Notes under the pieces: model-generated
What the model was told of the DNA's origin: nothing
Database searches by the model: none
The model's input: only the letters and a program-made list of their open reading frames with translations
In this document: positions 496 to 8,382 of the stretch, piece after piece
How positions within the stretch are numbered: the first letter of the stretch is position 1
Layout: each line of letters starts with the position of its first letter
Made by a program: the position numbers and the translations under genes
Source of the DNA: Chloroflexota bacterium
Lineage (GTDB): Bacteria > Chloroflexota > Anaerolineae > Promineifilales > Promineifilaceae
Direction: 5' to 3'
NCBI GenBank assembly: GCA_008501785.1
Contig: QQUD01000127.1
Location: 1 to 8,382, forward strand
DNA: 8,382 nt

Positions 496-1245
496 CTATC
501 GTTGATATAAAAGGGAAATCTGCACGATTTCTTTGACGATAATTTCCTGATCGGGAACAGGGCTGTGCATGAGGGATTCAATTTGCATGGCGACTAAATC
601 TTCGAGGTAGGCAGCACTCCATTCGTCAGCTAAAAATTGGCGCAAATCGGATAGGGTGTCGAAGTAGGTAATAAAGGCGAACGTTTCTGCGGATTGGAGA
701 TGGTAGATGTGTTGGGAAACGCCTGCACTGAGCGCAGCCGAAGTGACCGTTTCCAACGCCTCATCCGCCAACAGATAGGCATCATAATCACTGTCTTCAC
801 GCACCCAACCGACCAGATGATGTTCATCTGCCAGCCGGACAGTGATCGGGGCTGGCTCACTAATCGGGTGCATATCAATTAGGCAGCCACCGGGAGCCAA
901 TAAGCTGCAAATTTGCTTCAGAGCATGAACCATGCTCTCAGGTTCCATTCATCACAATGACCAGGCGAGAATCACCAGATCATACGGCTGTGCCGCAGGG
1001 AAATCTTCCAGCGCCGCAACGTGATAATGGACGTGGGTTTCATTTTCAGAGGCCAACTCGAATGCACGTTCGATTTTTGATTCGTTGGGGTCGATGGCGT
1101 CAACATGTGCCGCCTGGGCGGCGTATTTGCGGGTGATACGGCCGTTACCGCACCCCACTTCCAATACCCGCTTGCCCTCAAACCCACCAGCCAGCTCGGT
1201 TAATGCTTTTAATTCTTGATCAATGGGATCGTATCGGAATGCCAT
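496..1245 (-). CDS. Class I SAM-dependent methyltransferase with two adjacent in-frame UGA codons (candidate tandem-selenocysteine protein)
   Basis: Translating from ATG 1245-1243 gives 97 residues, then UGA (954-952) and UGA (951-949), then 150 more residues in the same frame to TAG at 496-498: 249 codons, a normal size for a Rossmann-fold methyltransferase. An in-frame TGA five codons upstream fixes the start; no good Shine-Dalgarno is seen. SAM motif I is VLEVGCGNG (residues 27-35), the acidic end of strand 2 is in DAIDPNE (Asp52), strand 4 is YDLVILAWSL (88-97), and the post-IV loop and helix LLAPGG (115-120) lie after the UGAs. Neither half is a complete methyltransferase: the first has the SAM site, the second has strand 5 and the C-terminal part. 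The UGAs fall right after strand 4, where class I enzymes place catalytic or substrate residues, and a SECIS-like hairpin follows. Alternatives are a pseudogene with a double stop, or two polypeptides made by termination-reinitiation at TGATGAATG. The substrate is unknown. The fold is certain; selenocysteine is an inference. Confidence 0.75.
726..745. repeat. Dispersed-repeat-like 20-mer inside the methyltransferase gene
   Basis: The 20-mer CACTGAGCGCAGCCGAAGTG closely resembles the family with core CTGAGCG(C/A/T)AG(T/C)CGAAG that, from memory, is scattered through many Chloroflexota and cyanobacterial genomes, usually between genes. Its ends are complementary (CACT/AGTG). Read on the plus strand it gives the hallmark peptide ERSRS. 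In the methyltransferase it encodes Thr-Ser-Ala-Ala-Leu-Ser in frame, without breaking the gene. It may be an in-frame repeat insertion or a chance match. Confidence 0.4.
920..954 (-). promoter_or_regulatory. Candidate bacterial SECIS element: UGA-UGA plus downstream hairpin
   Basis: On the mRNA (minus) strand the two UGA codons (954-949) are followed by 10 nt and then a perfect 8-bp stem AGAGCAUG / CAUGCUCU (938-931 with 927-920) closing a GUU loop (930-928). The loop begins 18 nt after the second UGA and 21 nt after the first. In E. coli fdhF the apical stem starts 11 nt after UGA, the loop begins 18 nt after it, and G-U in the apex contacts SelB; here the apex reads GGUUC. The match in distance, stem length and loop is seen directly, while function as a SECIS is inferred. 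The same bases encode Glu-Ser-Met-Val-His-Ala-Leu, so the hairpin lies inside the coding sequence, as bacterial SECIS elements do. Confidence 0.5.
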
Positions 1246-1364: not shown

Positions 1365-4300
1365 TCATAACAATTTCTGAATTTCACTAATGTCAAACCG
1401 TTTCGCCAGGGCATACACCTTACGTGCAAAGGGTATGTAACGCGCATCTATTGTCTCAATATGCGCTGCCCACTCTTGAATGCGTGACATGCTGCCTAAT
1501 TGTAAAAACTGTTTAAGTTTGGCTATTTCCTCTGCTGGTGGCAGAGTAATCTGGTCATAAGCAGATTCACCATCACCTACATCATCCATTTTTTGCTCAT
1601 AAATCCAATCAAGATTGAGATGGATAGCCAGTAAGTTTGCCAGTTCTGTCAACGCGACTGGCTTTATGAGAAAGGCATCGAAGCCAGCTTCTTGGATTAA
1701 TGTCCGATCTTCTTTGGCTCCAGCTGCGGAAACGGCAATGATGGGTAAATCTGGCCGAATCAATTTCTGCCGAATCTGTTTCACTGCTTCAATTCCATCC
1801 ATCACCGGCATCCAACGATCCATCAAGATCAGGTCTGGTTGCCATGATTGCGTCAACTCAATCGCGTGTTTTCCATCTTCTGCGGCAGCTACATAAAACC
1901 CTAATGGTTCAAGCAAATCTACCAGAATTGATCGACTTGAGGGGATGTCATCTACGATTAGTAATTTATATTGTGGGCCATGATACCCAACGATCTGCCT
2001 CTCAATAACGAGGTTTTGGGAAACGGCCGTATTGCTAATCACCAGTGGAATCGTAAATGTAAAAACTGACCCTTGCCCTGGCTGACTTTGTACACTGATT
2101 TCCCCTCTCATCAATTGTAAAATTTTGTGGCTAATCGCCAATCCTAATCCTGTGCCATCACTTGGGCGTAGCGGGTTAATCACTTGCTCAAAAGGTTGAA
2201 AAACCCGGTCAATCTGATCGGGGTCAATACCAATCCCTGTATCTTTCACCTCAAATGTGAAAATTCCAGTTAATGGTTCATCCGTCAATTTCTTGATTTT
2301 CTGAATGTTTATACGCAGGTTAATACTGCCGGTATGTGTAAATTTGATCGCATTTCCTAAAAGATTTAACAAGACCTGACGCAATCTTGTTTCATCAACT
2401 TTCACCCCTATTGGCAAATCATCTGGCATCTCAATGGTGAAAGAAAGGCCTTTTGCCTTGGCTCTTGCCTGGATAACATTGGCTACGTCTTTTAAAAACG
2501 ACGCGAAACGAATGTGGGTGGGATTGAGATCCATCTTATTGGCTTCAATTTTTGCAATGTCTAAGATGTCGTTGAGCAGCGTGAGCAGGTGTTCACCACT
2601 TTTTTGAATAATATTGAGTCCATCAAGTGCGTTAAAAGGTAATGTTCGTTTTCTTAAAATTTGAGCATATCCTAAAATTGCATTTAGGGGTGTGCGCAGT
2701 TCGTGACTCATTTGGGCCAAGAAAACGCTCTTGGCCCGGTTGGCTGTTTCGGCCGTTTCTTTAGCCAGCATGGTTTGCTCAAACAAACGGGCATTACTAA
2801 TTGTCACGGCGATATAATTTGCAAGTGTACGCAGCAAACTGGCATCACTTTCATCTAAACCAGCCACTTGATCAGATTGCACGTCCAGCACACCAAGCAA
2901 CTGCCCTTCGAGCACAATAGGCACGGCAATTTCTGATCGTGTCCTCGGCAGCAGCGGGTTGGGCAACCAATGCGTCGATTTGTGAACATCGTTGACAAAT
3001 ACCACCTGTTCTGTCTGCGCTGCTCGTGCGACAAAACTAACGGCCGTATCAATCGCAATCATATGCCCTTGATCTCTGAGCATTTCGCCAATCTTGCCCG
3101 TACCGGCGGCCATCGACAGGTTTCTGTTTTGCTCATCCAGCAAATAGATATGGACATAGTAGTAGTCCAACTCCTCCTTCACCGAATTAACGATTTCTAA
3201 CAGCAATCTATCCAAATCAAGAATGCCAATCAAGTGCTCACCTATTGAGGTCATCCGTTTGAGGCGCTCTGTCCGTTCCGCGACAAGCTCTTCAAGTTGG
3301 TCGCGGTGTTTGCGTAATTCGCTTTCCGCTTGTTTCCGTTCAGTAATATCTCTGGCTACAGAAATTGCAGCAGGTTCGCCATCCAAATCGATAATAATTG
3401 AACTGATCTCGACTGGAATTATTATTCCACCTTTAGTGATATGTTCAATCTCATATACAGCACGCCGTTTTGAAAGAAGCAACGCAGCATTTGCCGGCAG
3501 TTCAAACAAACGTGCTGGCGAATCTAATTGTTGCGGTCCCATTTGACGGAATTCATCACGACTATAACCATACCGTTCACAAGCAACATCATTCACATCA
3601 TAGAATTTACTGGGCATGTCATCATCGGTAAACCCATGTAGAAAAATGGCATCATTGGCATTATTGAAGAGGTAACGATATTTTGCATCGCTTTCTTTTA
3701 ATGCTTTTTCTGCCTGTTTGCGCTCTGTGATGTCTCGGGCAATTGAAAAGACGGTTGGCTCACCGTCTAACTCAATAAAATAGGCTCTCATTTCTACCGG
3801 AAACGGCCGTCCATCCTTTGTTTTATGAACCGCTTCCATAATCATTTGATTGTTTGCTAAAATACCTCGGCGAAAAGATTCGCTTTCTTCAGGGGTAACA
3901 GGCTCAGCAAAAAATTCAACCGAATTCATTTTGAGGAATTCATCTCGACTATAGCCATATCTTTTGCAAGCTATTTCATTGACATCCAACAATATGTTTG
4001 GCGGACCCGTCCGACTAAAACGATGTACAAAAATGGCGTCATTGCCGCTGTTAAATAACCGTCGATATCTGGCTTCACTTTCCTTTAGCGCGTTTTCAGC
4101 TTTTTTTCTATCTGTAATATCTCGAATGAAACAGATAACATCTTCATTCTCACTAATAACCATACGAACTTCGAAATCACGTAAATCGCCCTTGATATCA
4201 AGCTGATATTCATAAACTTGTGTTTTGCCCGTTTTGATAATCCGTTTTAGATGCTTACGTGTTAACTGTGCTAACCAAGGAGGTAATGCATCATCTACAT

Positions 4301-5045
4301 GTTTGCCTAAAAATGTCTCTGGTGGTTGATACAGATATTCTTGATTAGTTTGTGAGTGTTCAAGAAAGATGCCATCTTTACTTAGAAAAAAAATCAAATC
4401 AGGGATGGCATCCAATATCTCTCTGTTTTTTTTCTCGCTTTGGATGAGCGCAGCTTCGGTTTTTTTTCGATCTTGTATCTCACAATTAAACTGCTGATTA
4501 ATTTTTTTAAGTTTAGTTTGGTTGTGTGCCAGAGCAACCAAGTCTCGGTAGGAGCGCAGTGCAGTGACTAATGATGTTAATAGTTGCTGATAGGTTAGCT
4601 CAGATTTGACTTTATAATCGTTAATGTCGTATTGCAATATGATGAATTCTGATGGGGTTTCGTTTGGATGACCGGTACGCAAAATGATGCGAACGAAGGT
4701 GTTTTTTATGGTTTGGCGAATGTGTTTTACGGCCGTTAATCCACTATCCTGTTTTTCCATGACCAAATCGAGAAGAATAACGGCCGTATCGGGATGCTCA
4801 TCCAACAGCTTTCTCATTTCTTTCTCGGAGTAAGCCGATAAAAACAGCAGTGATTGGCCTTCAAACTCAAAATCTTGAAATGCGGCCTTTGTAGACTGAT
4901 GCACTTCAAAATCATCGTCAACAATCATCACCTTCCAGGGTGATTTCATTTTCTGGGGGGCACTAACTTGTTTTTCTTCTGAGGAAGTATCCATATATTT
5001 ATTATCCTCAGTTAAACGAGGATCATGATCAGAAAATCTTTTCAT
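1365..5045 (-). CDS. Soluble hybrid histidine kinase, REC-PAS-PAS-PAS-GAF-HisKA-HATPase-REC
   Basis: The gene encodes about 1,226 residues with no membrane segment, so it is a cytoplasmic sensor kinase. Residue numbers here count from a GTG at 5048, but ATG 5045 is preferred because GAGG (5056-5053) sits 7 nt before it. Domains: REC1 about 38-165 (acid cluster DDD 44-46, phospho-acceptor Asp94, Thr125, and a non-canonical YKVK in place of the usual Lys-Pro); coiled coil about 172-207; PAS about 205-315; PAS 320-442; PAS 448-570, each ending in D-I-T-(D/E)-R-K; helical linker 575-600; GAF about 600-755; HisKA with phospho-acceptor His782 in SHELRTPLNA; HATPase with N-box Asn899, G1 DTGIGI (936-941), F-box FQPFEQ and G2 GTGLGL (965-970); REC2 1028-1144 with Asp1077 and Lys1129; then a short helical tail from about 1170. 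All catalytic residues are present. It probably autophosphorylates on His782 and relays to Asp1077. The N-terminal receiver suggests control by another kinase. Ligand and target are unknown, and the stop is TGA at 1365-1367. Confidence 0.95.
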   Translation of the reverse strand: MKRFSDHDPRLTEDNKYMDTSSEEKQVSAPQKMKSPWKVMIVDDDFEVHQSTKAAFQDFEFEGQSLLFLSAYSEKEMRKLLDEHPDTAVILLDLVMEKQDSGLTAVKHIRQTIKNTFVRIILRTGHPNETPSEFIILQYDINDYKVKSELTYQQLLTSLVTALRSYRDLVALAHNQTKLKKINQQFNCEIQDRKKTEAALIQSEKKNREILDAIPDLIFFLSKDGIFLEHSQTNQEYLYQPPETFLGKHVDDALPPWLAQLTRKHLKRIIKTGKTQVYEYQLDIKGDLRDFEVRMVISENEDVICFIRDITDRKKAENALKESEARYRRLFNSGNDAIFVHRFSRTGPPNILLDVNEIACKRYGYSRDEFLKMNSVEFFAEPVTPEESESFRRGILANNQMIMEAVHKTKDGRPFPVEMRAYFIELDGEPTVFSIARDITERKQAEKALKESDAKYRYLFNNANDAIFLHGFTDDDMPSKFYDVNDVACERYGYSRDEFRQMGPQQLDSPARLFELPANAALLLSKRRAVYEIEHITKGGIIIPVEISSIIIDLDGEPAAISVARDITERKQAESELRKHRDQLEELVAERTERLKRMTSIGEHLIGILDLDRLLLEIVNSVKEELDYYYVHIYLLDEQNRNLSMAAGTGKIGEMLRDQGHMIAIDTAVSFVARAAQTEQVVFVNDVHKSTHWLPNPLLPRTRSEIAVPIVLEGQLLGVLDVQSDQVAGLDESDASLLRTLANYIAVTISNARLFEQTMLAKETAETANRAKSVFLAQMSHELRTPLNAILGYAQILRKRTLPFNALDGLNIIQKSGEHLLTLLNDILDIAKIEANKMDLNPTHIRFASFLKDVANVIQARAKAKGLSFTIEMPDDLPIGVKVDETRLRQVLLNLLGNAIKFTHTGSINLRINIQKIKKLTDEPLTGIFTFEVKDTGIGIDPDQIDRVFQPFEQVINPLRPSDGTGLGLAISHKILQLMRGEISVQSQPGQGSVFTFTIPLVISNTAVSQNLVIERQIVGYHGPQYKLLIVDDIPSSRSILVDLLEPLGFYVAAAEDGKHAIELTQSWQPDLILMDRWMPVMDGIEAVKQIRQKLIRPDLPIIAVSAAGAKEDRTLIQEAGFDAFLIKPVALTELANLLAIHLNLDWIYEQKMDDVGDGESAYDQITLPPAEEIAKLKQFLQLGSMSRIQEWAAHIETIDARYIPFARKVYALAKRFDISEIQKLL
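3340..4110 (-). repeat. Tandem duplicated PAS modules within the hybrid kinase
   Basis: The second and third PAS domains (residues about 320-442 and 448-570 of the kinase) are paralogous. Matching segments include NDAIFVH / NDAIFLH, DVNEIACKRYGYSRDEF / DVNDVACERYGYSRDEF and FSIARDITERKQAEKAL / ISVARDITERKQAESEL. Similarity is visible in the DNA too (around 3550-3575 against 3938-3960, and 3643-3658 against 4028-4043). This points to a relatively recent intragenic duplication. The boundaries are approximate. Confidence 0.7.
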
Positions 5046-5125
5046 CACTAAACCTCATAACAAAGGGCTATCATGTAAAACTTGCATCATTGTTGAATTG
5101 AAATTGTGTATGTGAATCACCAGAG

Positions 5126-5154
5126 ATGGTAACAAGGGCAAAAGCGTTTGGCAA
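5126..5154 (-). promoter_or_regulatory. Possible sigma-70-type promoter for the hybrid kinase
   Basis: On the minus strand TTGCCA (5154-5149) and TACCAT (5131-5126) are separated by exactly 17 nt. They match the -35 consensus at 5 of 6 positions and the -10 at 4 of 6. The site lies about 80 nt upstream of the preferred start codon, in the 221-bp spacer shared with the divergent AhpD-like gene. This is a pattern match only. I found no equally good candidate for the divergent gene. Confidence 0.25.
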
Positions 5155-5266
5155 TATGACCCTGCGGTATGGGCAGGAATTTTATTGCAGTTATGCAAAA
5201 TTATGTAACTTTTCGTGTTTCCAAACATCTAAAGATAAAATTTAGGATACAAAAAGGGATGAGTGA

Positions 5267-5752
5267 ATGCATCAATTTAGGCGAAGAACGTATGAAAGTT
5301 TGCGTGAAATGGCTGGGGATTTATTGTGGCCACTTCGGCATCGGACACAGATTAGGCAGGCGATGCGTGGTGGACTGGTATCTCCGCAATTTCGAGAGCG
5401 GTTGATGATGGTGGTTACGGCCGTTAACGAATGCCGCTACTGTGCTTATTACCACGCCCGTGAAAGTGAACGCGTTGGCCTCCCCAAAAGCGAAATCCGA
5501 GCGCTGCTCGCCGGCGATTTGGTAAATGCGCCAGAGGAAGAACTGCCTGCGTTGTTGTATGCACAGGGGTTTGCGGAGAGAAACGGCCGTTTTGACCCCA
5601 CCGCCCACCACTCCCTGCAAACCACCTATGGCCCCACCCGTGCCGCTACCATCGAAACGGTTCTCCACCTGATACGCACCGGAAACTTACTCGGCAACAC
5701 CACCGACTGGCTAATTTTCAAACTGTCGCTGGGGCATTGGGGAGGGGCCTAA
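5267..5752 (+). CDS. AhpD-like / carboxymuconolactone decarboxylase family protein
   Basis: The product is 161 residues, a usual length for the family. ATG 5267 is chosen because AGGGA (5255-5259) lies 7 nt upstream. The AhpD signature E-x11-C-x2-C-x3-H is complete: Glu44, Cys56, Cys59 and His63 (ERLMMVVTAV followed by NECRYCAYYH). In AhpD these form a redox-active dithiol with a proton-relay Glu/His pair that reduces peroxiredoxin AhpC. Many relatives of this type are uncharacterised peroxidase or disulfide-reductase-like proteins, so the substrate is not known. The rest is all-helical, ending in NLLGNTTDWLIFKLSLGHWGG, with no signal peptide or membrane span. It stands alone, divergent from the hybrid kinase and convergent with the glucokinase cluster. 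Two ACGGCCGT palindromes lie inside it. Both active-site positions are Cys here. Family assignment is firm; peroxide defence is an inference from the motif. Confidence 0.88.
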   Translation: MHQFRRRTYESLREMAGDLLWPLRHRTQIRQAMRGGLVSPQFRERLMMVVTAVNECRYCAYYHARESERVGLPKSEIRALLAGDLVNAPEEELPALLYAQGFAERNGRFDPTAHHSLQTTYGPTRAATIETVLHLIRTGNLLGNTTDWLIFKLSLGHWGGA

Positions 5753-5786
5753 ATCACATAAACCACTTCACCTTAACAGGTTCATG

Positions 5787-5882
5787 TTACGCAGGATCAA
5801 CGCCTAGAGCAAACTGGAGTGCTATTGCAACTTCCTCACGCTGCAATAGCATCTCATCGATTGTCATTTGAATAGTTTTCAT
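5787..5882 (-). pseudogene. 31-residue ORF, possible remnant of a ribbon-helix-helix antitoxin
   Basis: ATG at 5882-5880 is preceded by AGGTG 8 nt upstream and the frame ends at TAA 5789-5787. The first 14 residues, MKTIQMTIDEMLLQ, look like the beta-strand plus first-helix start of ribbon-helix-helix (CopG/ParD-like) DNA-binding antitoxins, which commonly begin M-K-T-I-Q-(V/M)-T-(I/L)-D. The remaining residues do not resemble the expected second helix, and the protein is less than half the usual 70-90 residues. No toxin gene adjoins. It may be a decayed antitoxin truncated just where the inverted repeat begins, or a chance ORF. Confidence 0.25.
5820..5851. repeat. Perfect 10-bp inverted repeat with 12-nt loop
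   Basis: TGCTATTGCA (5820-5829) and TGCAATAGCA (5842-5851) are exact reverse complements, separated by 12 nt. The repeat lies inside the small minus-strand ORF. No T tract follows on either strand, so it is not a standard terminator. It could be a protein-binding operator, an RNA hairpin or a relic of a small palindromic element. Confidence 0.55.
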
Positions 5883-6043
5883 TTGTCACACACCTATAAC
5901 AATGTGCATAATTATCCACCTTATACTGTGTGGTCACATCTGGTTCAAATTACAAACGGTGACTCTACTGAAAAAACTCGGTTTCTTCTCTAAATTGACA
6001 CAGATTACTCGACTGTAGAAACTAAGTTTTTAATGAGTGGAAA

Positions 6044-6781
6044 TTAACGGGCAGCAGAAACGGCCGCTCCAATAATCCCCGCTTCATTTAGCAGTTGCGC
6101 TGGCATAACATCGGCATGGACATTAATCCGGTGAATGAACTTTTCGTGTTTTTTGCTAACACCACCACCAATGATGATTAGCTCTGGCGAGAAGAGAAAT
6201 TCGATATGCTGAAAATAGGTAGTTAGACGCTTGCCCCATTTTTTCCAGCTTAATTCCTCGCCTTTACGAATGCGGTCAGACATGAATTCTTCTGCATCGA
6301 ATTTTTGATCGCGCAAATACATGTGCCCCAACTCCAGGTTAGGTACAATTTGACCATTCACAAACATGACGCTGCCAACCCCGGTTCCCAAGGTAAAAAT
6401 CATCACCACGCCTTTTTGATCGCGACCTGCGCCAAATCGCATTTCAGCCACACCAGCCACATCCGCATCATTCATCAGCGTGACTTTGCAACCCAGTGTT
6501 TCTGCCATTGCCTGCTGTCCGGGGAAACCAATCCAGCCATTATCAATATTGGCCGCACTTTTTACCACGCCATTAATCACAACCGAAGGAATTCCCACAC
6601 CAATAGGGCCACTGTAATCAAAGTGCGCCACGATTGTTTTCATGGTTTCGATTACTGCTTTGGGTGTCGCTGGCTGCGGGGTTGGAATACGCAGCCGTTC
6701 GGTAATCATCTCTCCTGTTTGTGTGTTGACCAATGCGCCTTTAATGCCAGACCCGCCGATGTCGATGCCTAATATTGCCAT
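6044..6781 (-). CDS. ppgK: Polyphosphate glucokinase (ROK family)
   Basis: This cytoplasmic enzyme phosphorylates glucose to glucose 6-phosphate using inorganic polyphosphate (in some members also ATP), feeding glycolysis. It has 245 residues from ATG 6781, chosen because GGAGG (6791-6787) lies 5 nt upstream; an in-frame ATG at 6793 overlaps that Shine-Dalgarno and is unlikely. The phosphate-binding loop GIDIGGSGIKGA spans residues 5-16, the catalytic Asp105 lies in LMNDADVAG, TLGTGVGS (130-137) is the second phosphate-binding segment, and the sugar-binding ELGHM is at 150-154. The context PNLELGH and the C-terminal SWKKWGKRL plus SPELIIIGGGVSKK are characteristic of PpgK rather than of general ROK sugar kinases or repressors; no zinc-binding Cys cluster or N-terminal DNA-binding domain is present. 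It is last in the minus-strand cluster, 72 bp after the patatin gene. Polyphosphate use is inferred from family resemblance. Confidence 0.87.
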   Translation of the reverse strand: MAILGIDIGGSGIKGALVNTQTGEMITERLRIPTPQPATPKAVIETMKTIVAHFDYSGPIGVGIPSVVINGVVKSAANIDNGWIGFPGQQAMAETLGCKVTLMNDADVAGVAEMRFGAGRDQKGVVMIFTLGTGVGSVMFVNGQIVPNLELGHMYLRDQKFDAEEFMSDRIRKGEELSWKKWGKRLTTYFQHIEFLFSPELIIIGGGVSKKHEKFIHRINVHADVMPAQLLNEAGIIGAAVSAAR

Positions 6782-6793
6782 GTGTGCCTCCAT

Positions 6794-6828
6794 AGTCCGT
6801 AGTCCATCGTCCGTAGTCCGTCGTCCGA
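6794..6828. repeat. 7-bp tandem array (5 units), part of an extended inverted repeat
   Basis: Five heptamers run without gaps: AGTCCGT, AGTCCAT, CGTCCGT, AGTCCGT, CGTCCGA. An inverted copy, ACGGACTAC, lies at 6849-6857 and pairs with GTAGTCCGT at 6813-6821. TCCGA (6824-6828) pairs with TCGGA (6835-6839) inside it. The result is a nested hairpin filling the 72-bp gap between the patatin stop and the ppgK Shine-Dalgarno, and the distal arm includes the patatin stop codon. Confidence 0.65.
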
Positions 6829-6853
6829 AAAATGTCGGATTAGGGGTTACGGA

Positions 6854-7693
6854 CTACAGTTTACGGGCTGTTTGTTTAATAATCTCGTCAAGGTGAGGCA
6901 AAACGGCCGTTTTTCCCACCTCAACTCCTTCTTCCCAACGATGAAAGTCGAGAATGCCAATCGTGCCTAAATCAGGTTGTAACAAAATTTCTGGCTGTGA
7001 AATCGCCATCCGTGTGTTTAAAGATTGCGCCGTAACAATATCGACCACCGTTGACAGCATTTGCCAGGTGCGATTGCGCTGCGTGATGTTTAACACACGT
7101 TCAAGTACATTGCCGGTAGTGGGTACGTTTTGCGTGGTTGTGCCATAGGGAGCTGTGTTGGTCAAGTCAATCGCCAGCACAAAGTTGGCCCCGCGCGCCC
7201 GGGCCACATCAAACGGCACATTGTTCATAATGCCGCCATCGACCAGCGTGTGCCCGTCCCGTTCAACAGGTGGCAATACCAAGGGGAGTGCGATAGTGGC
7301 AAGAACGGCCGTTATCAAATCCCCCTCATCCAAAATCACCGGCTTCCGCTGCACCACATCCGTCGCCACAATTGCCAGCGGGATATTTAAATCAGCAAAT
7401 GTAATCCCCCCGATCATCTCTTGCAGCAACTTCTCAATTTTGTTGTTATTGCTAAAGGCAGGGAGCGTACCAGGCAGGCTGTACATGCCCGCAATCGACA
7501 GCTTCTCAAAAAATTCAGCAAGCTGTTCGGCATTAAACCCAGCCGCCAGCAGCGCCCCAATCATGCCGCCAATGCTCGTTCCCGTAATTAAATCAGGGTA
7601 AACACCCACCTGCTCCAATTCAGCAATGACGCCAATATGGGCTGCGCCACGTGCACCGCCGCCACCCAATGTCAAACCGAATTTATCGCTCAT
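6854..7693 (-). CDS. Patatin-like phospholipase / serine esterase (RssA-type)
   Basis: A 279-residue single-domain patatin with a Ser-Asp dyad. The oxyanion-hole motif GGGGARG is at residues 10-16, the nucleophile Ser40 sits in GTSIGG, and the catalytic Asp152 is in VDGGIMNNVP. The family hydrolyses acyl esters of phospholipids or other lipids; the true substrate is unknown. The length and the early GGGGARG are typical of compact bacterial RssA-like proteins. No signal peptide, transmembrane helix, cNMP-binding or surface-antigen domain is present, so it is probably cytoplasmic or peripherally membrane-associated. Its ATG (7693-7691) overlaps the stop of the upstream pyrimidine-nucleoside phosphorylase in an ATGA arrangement, indicating translational coupling. 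The stop is TAG at 6856-6854, inside the arm of a hairpin-forming repeat. Two ACGGCCGT palindromes fall within it, both read as Thr-Ala-Val. The catalytic assignment is firm. Confidence 0.92.
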   Translation of the reverse strand: MSDKFGLTLGGGGARGAAHIGVIAELEQVGVYPDLITGTSIGGMIGALLAAGFNAEQLAEFFEKLSIAGMYSLPGTLPAFSNNNKIEKLLQEMIGGITFADLNIPLAIVATDVVQRKPVILDEGDLITAVLATIALPLVLPPVERDGHTLVDGGIMNNVPFDVARARGANFVLAIDLTNTAPYGTTTQNVPTTGNVLERVLNITQRNRTWQMLSTVVDIVTAQSLNTRMAISQPEILLQPDLGTIGILDFHRWEEGVEVGKTAVLPHLDEIIKQTARKL

Positions 7694-8382
7694 GCAACCG
7701 TTCCATAAAAATGTGGCAGTGGCTCAACCGGTTCGTCTGACCAGGTAATCGCTGCCAGCAGTTCTTCCCGTGCCGTCGCTAATTTTTCAAAATCGTTTGC
7801 ATGAATTTCACCCAAAATGTGGCCAGCTTCTAGTTGCTCGCCCACTTTTGTCGGCAAAATCATGCCTACTGCATGGTCAATTTTATCGCTTTTAACGAGT
7901 CGTCCCGCACCCAAACGCACATTTGCCCAACCAATTGCCGTAGTATCCATTGCCGCAATCCACCCGGACCGGGGTGCGACCACTTGTTCAATAAATTGCG
8001 CACTCGGCAGCAAGTCAGGATTATCAACTTGCGCCACATCGCCCCCCTGCGCGGCTACCATGTCACGGAATTTAGCGAAGGCGCTACCGTTATCGCGAAC
8101 GGCCGTTATCATCGCCTTCCCCGCATCCAAACTGTCCGCCTTTCCCGCCAGCCGCAGCATATGCCCGCCAACTTCCAGGCAATGTGCCCAAAATCCGGCC
8201 GGACCATCCCCTTGCAGCGCCGCAATCGCCTCTTTCACTTCCAACGCATTGCCAATCGCATGACCGAGCGGCTGATTCATGTCCGACAGCAGCGCCACTA
8301 TCTTGCGGCCTGCATCTTTGCCAATGTCCACCATCACCTGCGCCAGCTCTTGCGCTTTTTCCACATTTGGCACAAATGCACC
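7690..8382 (-). CDS. pdp: Pyrimidine-nucleoside phosphorylase, C-terminal half (truncated by the window edge)
   Basis: The frame is open through the right edge: Gly-Ala-Phe-Val precede PNVEKAQELAQ, matching the family's conserved GAF(M) segment, so the GTG at 8373 is internal and the true start lies outside. The 230 visible residues are the second half of a protein normally about 430-440 long. The segment SDMNQPLGHAIGNALEVKEA followed by GDGP is characteristic. The C-terminal barrel-sandwich domain (APRSGWIAAMDTTAIGWANVRLGAGR, then KIDHAVGMILPTKVGEQLEAG) closes the protein. The enzyme reversibly phosphorolyses uridine and/or thymidine to the base plus (deoxy)ribose 1-phosphate. The QPLG form of the motif favours the Bacillus-type Pdp over E. 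coli-type DeoA, but specificity cannot be settled from this half. It is the first visible gene of the minus-strand cluster and overlaps the patatin gene by 4 bases (ATGA). Confidence 0.92.
   Translation of the reverse strand, partial: GAFVPNVEKAQELAQVMVDIGKDAGRKIVALLSDMNQPLGHAIGNALEVKEAIAALQGDGPAGFWAHCLEVGGHMLRLAGKADSLDAGKAMITAVRDNGSAFAKFRDMVAAQGGDVAQVDNPDLLPSAQFIEQVVAPRSGWIAAMDTTAIGWANVRLGAGRLVKSDKIDHAVGMILPTKVGEQLEAGHILGEIHANDFEKLATAREELLAAITWSDEPVEPLPHFYGTVA

What the first reader, a model, noticed from the sequence alone, without database searches (positions are those of the whole stretch)
920..954. Two consecutive in-frame UGA codons followed by a SECIS-like hairpin in a methyltransferase: candidate Sec-Sec enzyme
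Seen: one reading frame (1245 to 496, minus) is methyltransferase-like throughout and is broken only by UGA-UGA at 954-949. Ten nt later a perfect 8-bp stem closes a GUU loop, with 18 nt from the second UGA to the loop. Known: in E. coli fdhF the loop also begins 18 nt after UGA with G-U at the apex, and bacterial SECIS elements lie in the coding sequence just after UGA. Random decay would rarely give two adjacent stops with no frameshift or other lesion. Inference: both UGAs encode selenocysteine, replacing a likely Cys-Cys in relatives. Tandem Sec pairs are rare and I do not know of one described in a methyltransferase of this type.
Basis: partly seen in the sequence, partly recalled or inferred. 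Interest (0 to 1): 0.93.

Follow-up and report, generated by a model that had tools for sequence, protein, structure and literature searches.

The report
Bacterial methyltransferase with tandem selenocysteine pair
This bacterial methyltransferase-like gene carries two side-by-side UGA codons followed by a hairpin; relatives in 48 of 400 searched genomes keep one or both UGAs and the hairpin, and the two codons are very likely read as neighbouring selenocysteines, a pair that our literature searches did not find described in bacteria.

Summary
Observation confirmed; interpretation supported. The minus frame 1245-496 is one class I methyltransferase frame broken only by UGA-UGA (954-949), followed by a hairpin (938-920). 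Decay or base-calling error does not explain it: an HMM search of 400 genomes of a relative's phylum (Chloroflexota) gave 54 matches, 53 genes, in 48 genomes, every gene with in-frame UGA here. Across these and the window (54 loci) the two codons are UGA 92, UGU 8, UGC 8, nothing else (38 UU, 14 UC, 2 CU); Cys-type relatives have Cys-Cys. The hairpin pairs in 398 of 432 cells against 285 expected from synonymous recoding, with two-sided changes at 6 of 8 pairs. Coding constraint is similar on both sides. In 40 UGA-bearing genomes selD is over cut-off in 40, selB in 36, tRNA-Sec in 36, SelA strong in 38. Natural UC and CU forms suggest that one hairpin can serve both codons. A 2026 catalogue of 119 prokaryotic selenoprotein families lists no adjacent-Sec motif; an algal protein has one. 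Selenium insertion and the substrate are untested.

The parts
496..1245 (-). Read-through methyltransferase gene, 249 residues with predicted Sec98-Sec99, stop TAG at 498-496
   Evidence: AlphaFold2 model with Cys for Sec, mean pLDDT 93.7, pTM 0.89
1138..1161 (-). SAM-binding loop EVGCGNGR (residues 29-36)
   Evidence: G31, G33 and R36 invariant in 25 aligned relatives; SAM-binding role from general knowledge of class I methyltransferases
952..954 (-). First in-frame UGA, predicted Sec98
   Evidence: UGA or Cys codon in 54 of 54 loci
949..951 (-). Second in-frame UGA, predicted Sec99
   Evidence: UGA or Cys codon in 54 of 54 loci
920..938 (-). Bacterial SECIS-type hairpin: arms 938-931 and 927-920, loop GUU 930-928
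   Evidence: 398 of 432 cells paired versus synonymous null 284.7, sd 7.2; 6 to 8 of 8 pairs in every one of 54 loci; two-sided changes at 6 of 8 pairs
496..948 (-). C-terminal part, listed as a separate 150-aa ORF that begins just after the UGAs
   Evidence: P0002; P0003-P0028 look like the same truncation in relatives, whose DNA was not seen

Best explanation
The gene encodes a class I SAM-dependent methyltransferase-like protein whose two adjacent UGA codons are very likely both read as selenocysteine, probably directed by the single hairpin that starts ten nucleotides after the second UGA. Shown: in-frame UGAs exchanged only with Cys codons among relatives, a conserved and covarying hairpin, similar coding constraint on both sides, and Sec machinery in related genomes. 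Inferred: SelB with Sec-tRNA decodes the first UGA at 21 nt and then the second at 18 nt from the loop of the same hairpin; natural forms with only the first UGA (UC, 14 loci) or only the second (CU, 2 loci) suggest that each spacing can work alone. Inferred from the model: the pair lies just after strand beta-4 (motif IV), where class I enzymes usually face the methyl group of SAM and where six more distant relatives have His-His by eye. Most likely function (inferred, about 45% against other functions): the vicinal selenols bind a soft substrate, a metal(loid) or a thiol/selenol compound, and present it to SAM; a diselenide redox switch is the main alternative.
For: HMM search of 400 genomes: 54 matches in 48 genomes, 53 genes, each gene with TGA; G028 is one frameshifted gene in two matches, its downstream piece holding 2 TGA. 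A single-sequence search gave 43 matches in 40 genomes, all with TGA. 108 codons in 54 loci: 92 TGA, 8 TGT, 8 TGC. Cys-Cys in P0029-P0031, P0048-P0055, P0058, P0059 and P0060-P0065. Hairpin: 398/432 pairs, synonymous null 284.7 sd 7.2, maximum 310 in 2000 runs; 50 of 54 loci with at least 7 pairs against 8.0 expected; G at the same loop base in 54 of 54; MFE at or below -7.5 in 53 of 54; slid structures pair 22-59% against 92%; 22 cells with two-sided change against 5.7 shuffled. The window meets the published bSECIS limits (PMC13188914 section 5): loop 3 nt, stem 8 bp, G first in the loop, 18 and 21 nt from the UGAs, MFE -11.1. dN/dS in 16 chosen pairs: 0.09-0.34 upstream, 0.10-0.39 downstream, four saturated values (two on each side, among them window-L001 on both) aside. 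Of 40 UGA-bearing genomes: selD 40, selB 36, tRNA-Sec 36 over cut-off, SelA strong in 38; the other 8 of the 48 genomes have SelA too. selD itself has an in-frame TGA in 39 of 40. ARAGORN calls tRNA-SeC with anticodon TCA in 5 of 5 loci, the nearest relative's included. On the best tree the states UU, UC, CU, CC and HH need 15 changes.
Against: No direct proof of Sec. The window's own genome is not held. SelA is common in this phylum (327 of 400 over cut-off), so its presence is a necessary condition and weak support. The tRNA-Sec model passes its cut-off in 5 of 14 control genomes, three of which (Caulobacter, Thermus, Thermotoga) have no SelA match, so a hit alone is not specific. Gaps: no tRNA-Sec over cut-off in G168, G200, G259, G318; selB below cut-off in G001, G045, G096 and absent in G287; SelA weak in G096, absent in G287. 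In the genome searches only the best 6 candidates of each genome were scored, so a Cys-type copy could have been missed. DNA of Cys-type relatives could not be fetched, so the control 'no hairpin without UGA' is missing. One covariation measure, further pair types, is no better than shuffles (131 of 500). 15 of 54 loci lack the outermost pair and 17 the innermost; one of the two CU loci, L016, has the weakest hairpin (MFE -3.9). No Rfam family matches the hairpin. Function rests on position and fold alone; neighbours give no clue.
Confidence: 0.88

Rival explanations
1. Pseudogene or sequencing error: two nonsense changes in a dead or misread methyltransferase gene.
For: Two stops interrupt the frame; one relative, G028, does have a frameshifted copy.
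Against: UGA is in every one of 53 genes found in 48 genomes; dN/dS stays low on both sides; the hairpin is maintained.
Confidence: 0.005
2. Split gene: the N-terminal half stops at UGA and the C-terminal half restarts at the AUG right after it by translational coupling, giving a two-chain enzyme.
For: UGAUGAAUG in the window; databases list halves as separate ORFs.
Against: The codon after the pair is ATG in only 10 of 54 loci (GTG in 7; ATC or ATT in 30); exchange with Cys codons and the covarying hairpin stay unexplained; Cys-type relatives are one chain.
Confidence: 0.015
3. UGA is read through as cysteine or another ordinary residue by a suppressor tRNA, with the hairpin as a read-through stimulator; no selenium.
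For: Cys is the only alternative residue at both places, so Cys would be tolerated.
Against: UGA ends other frames of the window; tRNA-Sec, selA, selB and selD, the last with its own in-frame UGA, are found in relatives; the tRNA-Cys near selC in G001 has anticodon GCA; the hairpin fits the bSECIS model.
Confidence: 0.03
4. Only one of the two UGAs is decoded well as Sec; the other is often a termination point or takes an ordinary residue, so the Sec-Sec form is minor.
For: UC and CU forms show that one Sec can be enough; back-to-back Sec insertion is thought to be inefficient (recalled).
Against: 38 of 54 loci keep both UGAs and several supported clades are wholly UU.
Confidence: 0.07

Closest known systems
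MduS, methyltransferase domain-containing double selenoprotein (NCBIfam NF045649)
   Same: Methyltransferase domain and two Sec residues (catalogue entry)
   Different: Catalogued motif CxxU; the window protein scores 22.6 bits against a cut-off of 380, and 0 of 400 genomes of the phylum match at E 1e-30. No MduS sequence was seen, so its Sec positions were not compared
Algal PDI_e (GUGUU motif)
   Same: Two consecutive Sec residues; its authors call it the first such case (PMC7539508, passages)
   Different: Eukaryotic and PDI-type rather than a bacterial methyltransferase with an in-frame SECIS
ArsM-type selenoproteins (NF008823, NF041536, NF041537, NF047649)
   Same: Methyltransferases with Sec, listed in the 2026 catalogue
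   Different: Catalogued motif UxxG; here an adjacent pair just after beta-4, and no other conserved Cys outside the SAM loop
CpaM, corrinoid protein-associated methyltransferase (NF043040)
   Same: Best NCBIfam match over the methyltransferase core
   Different: 64 bits against a cut-off of 180
E. coli fdhF SECIS
   Same: In-frame hairpin just after UGA with G-U in the apical loop (recalled)
   Different: Serves one UGA; here one hairpin follows two adjacent UGAs

Membership tests
Bacterial selenoprotein | In-frame UGA where homologues have Cys | tested here: met
Bacterial selenoprotein | bSECIS hairpin within the published limits | tested here: met
   Window: loop 3 nt, stem 8 bp, G first, 18/21 nt, MFE -11.1; MFE limit met in 53 of 54 loci
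Bacterial selenoprotein | Hairpin conserved through compensatory changes | tested here: met
   6 of 8 pairs with two-sided changes; four of five measures exceed all 500 shuffles
Bacterial selenoprotein | Sec machinery in the same genome | tested here: inconclusive
   Window genome not held; in 40 UGA-bearing relatives selD 40, selB 36, tRNA-Sec 36 over cut-off, SelA strong in 38
Bacterial selenoprotein | Selenium found in the protein | not testable with these tools
   Needs 75Se labelling or mass spectrometry
Class I SAM-dependent methyltransferase | Domain score over Pfam cut-off and matching fold | tested here: met
Class I SAM-dependent methyltransferase | Methyl transfer activity | not testable with these tools
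   No assay
MduS (NF045649) | Curated NCBIfam score | tested here: not met
   22.6 bits, cut-off 380
CpaM (NF043040) | Curated NCBIfam score | tested here: not met
   64 bits, cut-off 180
Arsenite methyltransferase ArsM | Three conserved substrate-binding Cys (recalled) | tested here: inconclusive
   In A1 only residues 98, 99 and the nearly invariant C32 of the SAM loop are conserved Cys/Sec; the criterion is recalled and no ArsM sequence was aligned

The most novel reading that the evidence does not exclude
A widespread, overlooked family of bacterial methyltransferases carries a vicinal diselenol (Sec-Sec) at the mouth of the SAM site, made by back-to-back decoding of UGA-UGA under one hairpin: the first prokaryotic Sec-Sec enzyme and a natural system for processive Sec insertion, with UC and CU forms as built-in single-site controls.
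Probability: 0.78. Interest if true: 0.92.

Novelty: new variant of a known kind. Interest (0 to 1): 0.86.

Why it matters
Bacterial SECIS hairpins are generally described as serving one UGA (general knowledge); here one hairpin would serve two neighbouring codons, and relatives exist with only the first or only the second UGA, so processive Sec decoding can be tested on natural variants. The family occurs in 48 of 400 sampled Chloroflexota genomes, yet the protein databases searched list it as separate truncated ORFs, so an enzyme family is hidden by stop-codon annotation. A selenol pair at the active site of a methyltransferase would suggest unusual chemistry, such as metal(loid) or selenium methylation, or redox gating.

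Tried and rejected
Viral contigs: no relative. Plasmids: a near search with window 4000-8382, which does not hold this gene, found no match; the gene itself was not searched there. Rfam: nothing at gathering scores in the window, and only two chance-level hits at E 6.5 and 8 around the hairpin. Neighbourhood: in 22 loci clustered, upp, a zinc alcohol dehydrogenase, an amidase, DUF1801 and a C69 peptidase recur in one set of relatives (neighbours named from L047, L051, L063 and L065 only); the window and L001 share none of these clusters, so no function was drawn from them. MduS and CpaM rejected on score. UGA=Cys through an odd tRNA-Cys: the 2017 mBio paper (PMC5424206, passages) concerns Cys charging of tRNA-Cys, does not mention UGA, and gave no support. 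Of the distant hits P0032-P0047, the five aligned (P0032, P0034, P0037, P0038, P0042) have no Cys-Cys; the others were not examined at this place. Papers seen: PMC13188914 (outline, section 5 whole, section 7 parts 1 and 2 of 3, passages); PMC9312934, PMC1088965, PMC2398784, PMC12013277, PMC5029168, PMC7539508 and PMC5424206 (passages only). Not held, hence unread: Haft and Tolstoy 2025 and Haft and Gwadz 2023; Deng 2026 was seen only as cited in the review. 'Not found described in bacteria' rests on the listings and on the catalogue table, whose motif column shows no adjacent Sec pair but gives no motif for some entries. A structural family absent from the VIA list is not thereby excluded. 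In the second draft I lowered the main confidence from 0.93 to 0.88, one rival from 0.10 to 0.07 and the novel case from 0.80 to 0.78, because the odds summed to more than one and the tRNA-Sec control proved less specific than I had written.

Full report
What is there. The minus-strand frame 1245-496 encodes 249 residues when the two UGAs at 954-949 are read through. It matches Methyltransf_25 at 70.6 bits over a cut-off of 27, across the UGAs. The hairpin lies at 938-920, starting 10 nt after the second UGA, with loop GUU; the loop is 18 nt from the second UGA and 21 nt from the first. UGA is an ordinary stop for three other frames of the window, among them the histidine kinase and the phosphorylase.

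The same break recurs in relatives. In the protein search, the 26 best hits other than the window itself (P0003-P0028) are 136-147 aa ORFs that begin just downstream of the pair; their DNA was not seen. A later profile search also lists N-terminal halves; the seven that I read (P0066, P0067, P0070, P0071, P0078, P0081, P0082) end at the Leu just before the pair. The one locus found among GTDB contigs, L001 from an Anaerolineae MAG, keeps TGATGA and the hairpin at about 50% protein identity. A single-sequence search of 400 genomes of that phylum gave 43 matches in 40 genomes, all with 1-2 TGA. A profile search gave 54 matches in 48 genomes at E 1e-20: 53 genes, all with TGA, one (G028) being split by a frameshift into two matches. 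In both searches at most six candidates per genome were scored, so weaker or extra copies, Cys-type ones included, could be missed.

Sec/Cys exchange. With the window this makes 54 loci. The two codons are TGA 92 times, TGT 8 and TGC 8 times; 38 loci are UU, 14 UC and 2 CU. In a 25-row alignment (22 UGA-type, 3 Cys-type) both positions are invariant as Cys/Sec, as are glycines of the SAM loop. Further Cys-type relatives, labelled Hodarchaeales, Kariarchaeaceae or Thaumarchaeota archaea or unlabelled, have Cys-Cys (P0048-P0055, P0058, P0059; P0060-P0065; some are fragments). Six more distant ones (P0077, P0084-P0088) have His-His there by eye, and five still more distant ones have neither. On the best tree of 70 rows the states UU, UC, CU, CC and HH need 15 changes, the least possible being 4; well-supported branches alone force at least 8 changes of the UU label.

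The hairpin. 398 of 432 possible pairs form; random synonymous recoding of the same peptides gives 284.7 (sd 7.2, maximum 310 in 2000 runs). At least 7 of 8 pairs form in 50 of 54 loci against 8.0 expected, and never fewer than 6. Six of eight pairs show changes on both sides; structures slid by 1-3 columns pair 22-59% instead of 92%; four of five measures exceed all 500 shuffles, the fifth (further pair types) does not (131 of 500). The first base of the three-nt loop is G in 54 of 54, and 53 of 54 have MFE at or below -7.5; the exception is L016, one of the two CU loci. The window meets the published bacterial SECIS limits. The weakest pairs are the outermost (39 of 54) and the innermost (37 of 54). 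A control with DNA from Cys-type relatives was not possible.

Translation across the UGAs. In 16 pairs of loci that I chose, dN/dS is 0.09-0.34 upstream and 0.10-0.39 downstream; four values are saturated, two on each side, among them window against L001 on both sides, and give only upper bounds of 0.08-0.24 under an assumed dS of 2. The codon after the pair is ATG in 10 of 54 and GTG in 7, which argues against restart of translation as the general mode.

Machinery. The window's genome is not held. In the genome behind L001 (G001) there are SelA, tRNA-Sec at 69 bits with anticodon TCA, selD with an in-frame TGA and selB probably in two pieces on separate contigs, none over the cut-off (my reading: the best-scoring frame there looks like EF-Tu). 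Among the 40 UGA-bearing genomes: selD 40, selB 36 and tRNA-Sec 36 over cut-off, SelA strong in 38; the 8 genomes added also have SelA and were not tested for the rest. Against over-reading: SelA is common in the phylum (327 of 400), and the tRNA-Sec model passes its cut-off in 5 of 14 control genomes, three of them without a SelA match. ARAGORN called tRNA-SeC in the 5 loci given to it.

Known or new. The 2026 review table of 119 prokaryotic selenoprotein families (PMC13188914) shows no motif with an adjacent Sec pair; nearest by name are MduS and ArsM types. MduS is excluded on score (22.6 against 380 bits; 0 of 400 genomes at E 1e-30). A consecutive Sec-Sec is described in an algal PDI (PMC7539508, passages). 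Two relevant papers could not be read, so prior mention cannot be fully excluded.

Noticed in passing
window 1138, 2023, 3040, 3803, 4729, 4780, 5417, 5583, 6903, 7305, 8099: The palindrome ACGGCCGT occurs 11 times in 8.4 kb (0.09 expected from base composition) and 43 times in 36.9 kb of 14 loci of the relative G001, but 0 times in four loci of other genomes of the phylum (L046, L049, L054, L060): a highly iterated palindrome, like HIP1 of cyanobacteria (recalled), perhaps shared by one lineage.
   Followed up: partly
P0077, P0084-P0088: Six distant relatives carry His-His, by eye, where the Sec/Cys pair lies, which hints at ligand or substrate binding by this pair.
   Followed up: partly
G028, locus L091: One relative has a frameshift in the N-terminal half (or an assembly error) but keeps TGATGA and the hairpin.
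   Followed up: no
window 5267-5752 (+): Carboxymuconolactone decarboxylase/AhpD-like protein with a CRYC (CxxC) motif; CMD-like proteins with CxxU are listed among known selenoproteins.
   Followed up: no
G065:C16 (L056) and G388 (L046, L063): Some genomes hold two copies: G388 has one CU and one UU copy, G065 two UC copies about 5 kb apart.
   Followed up: no
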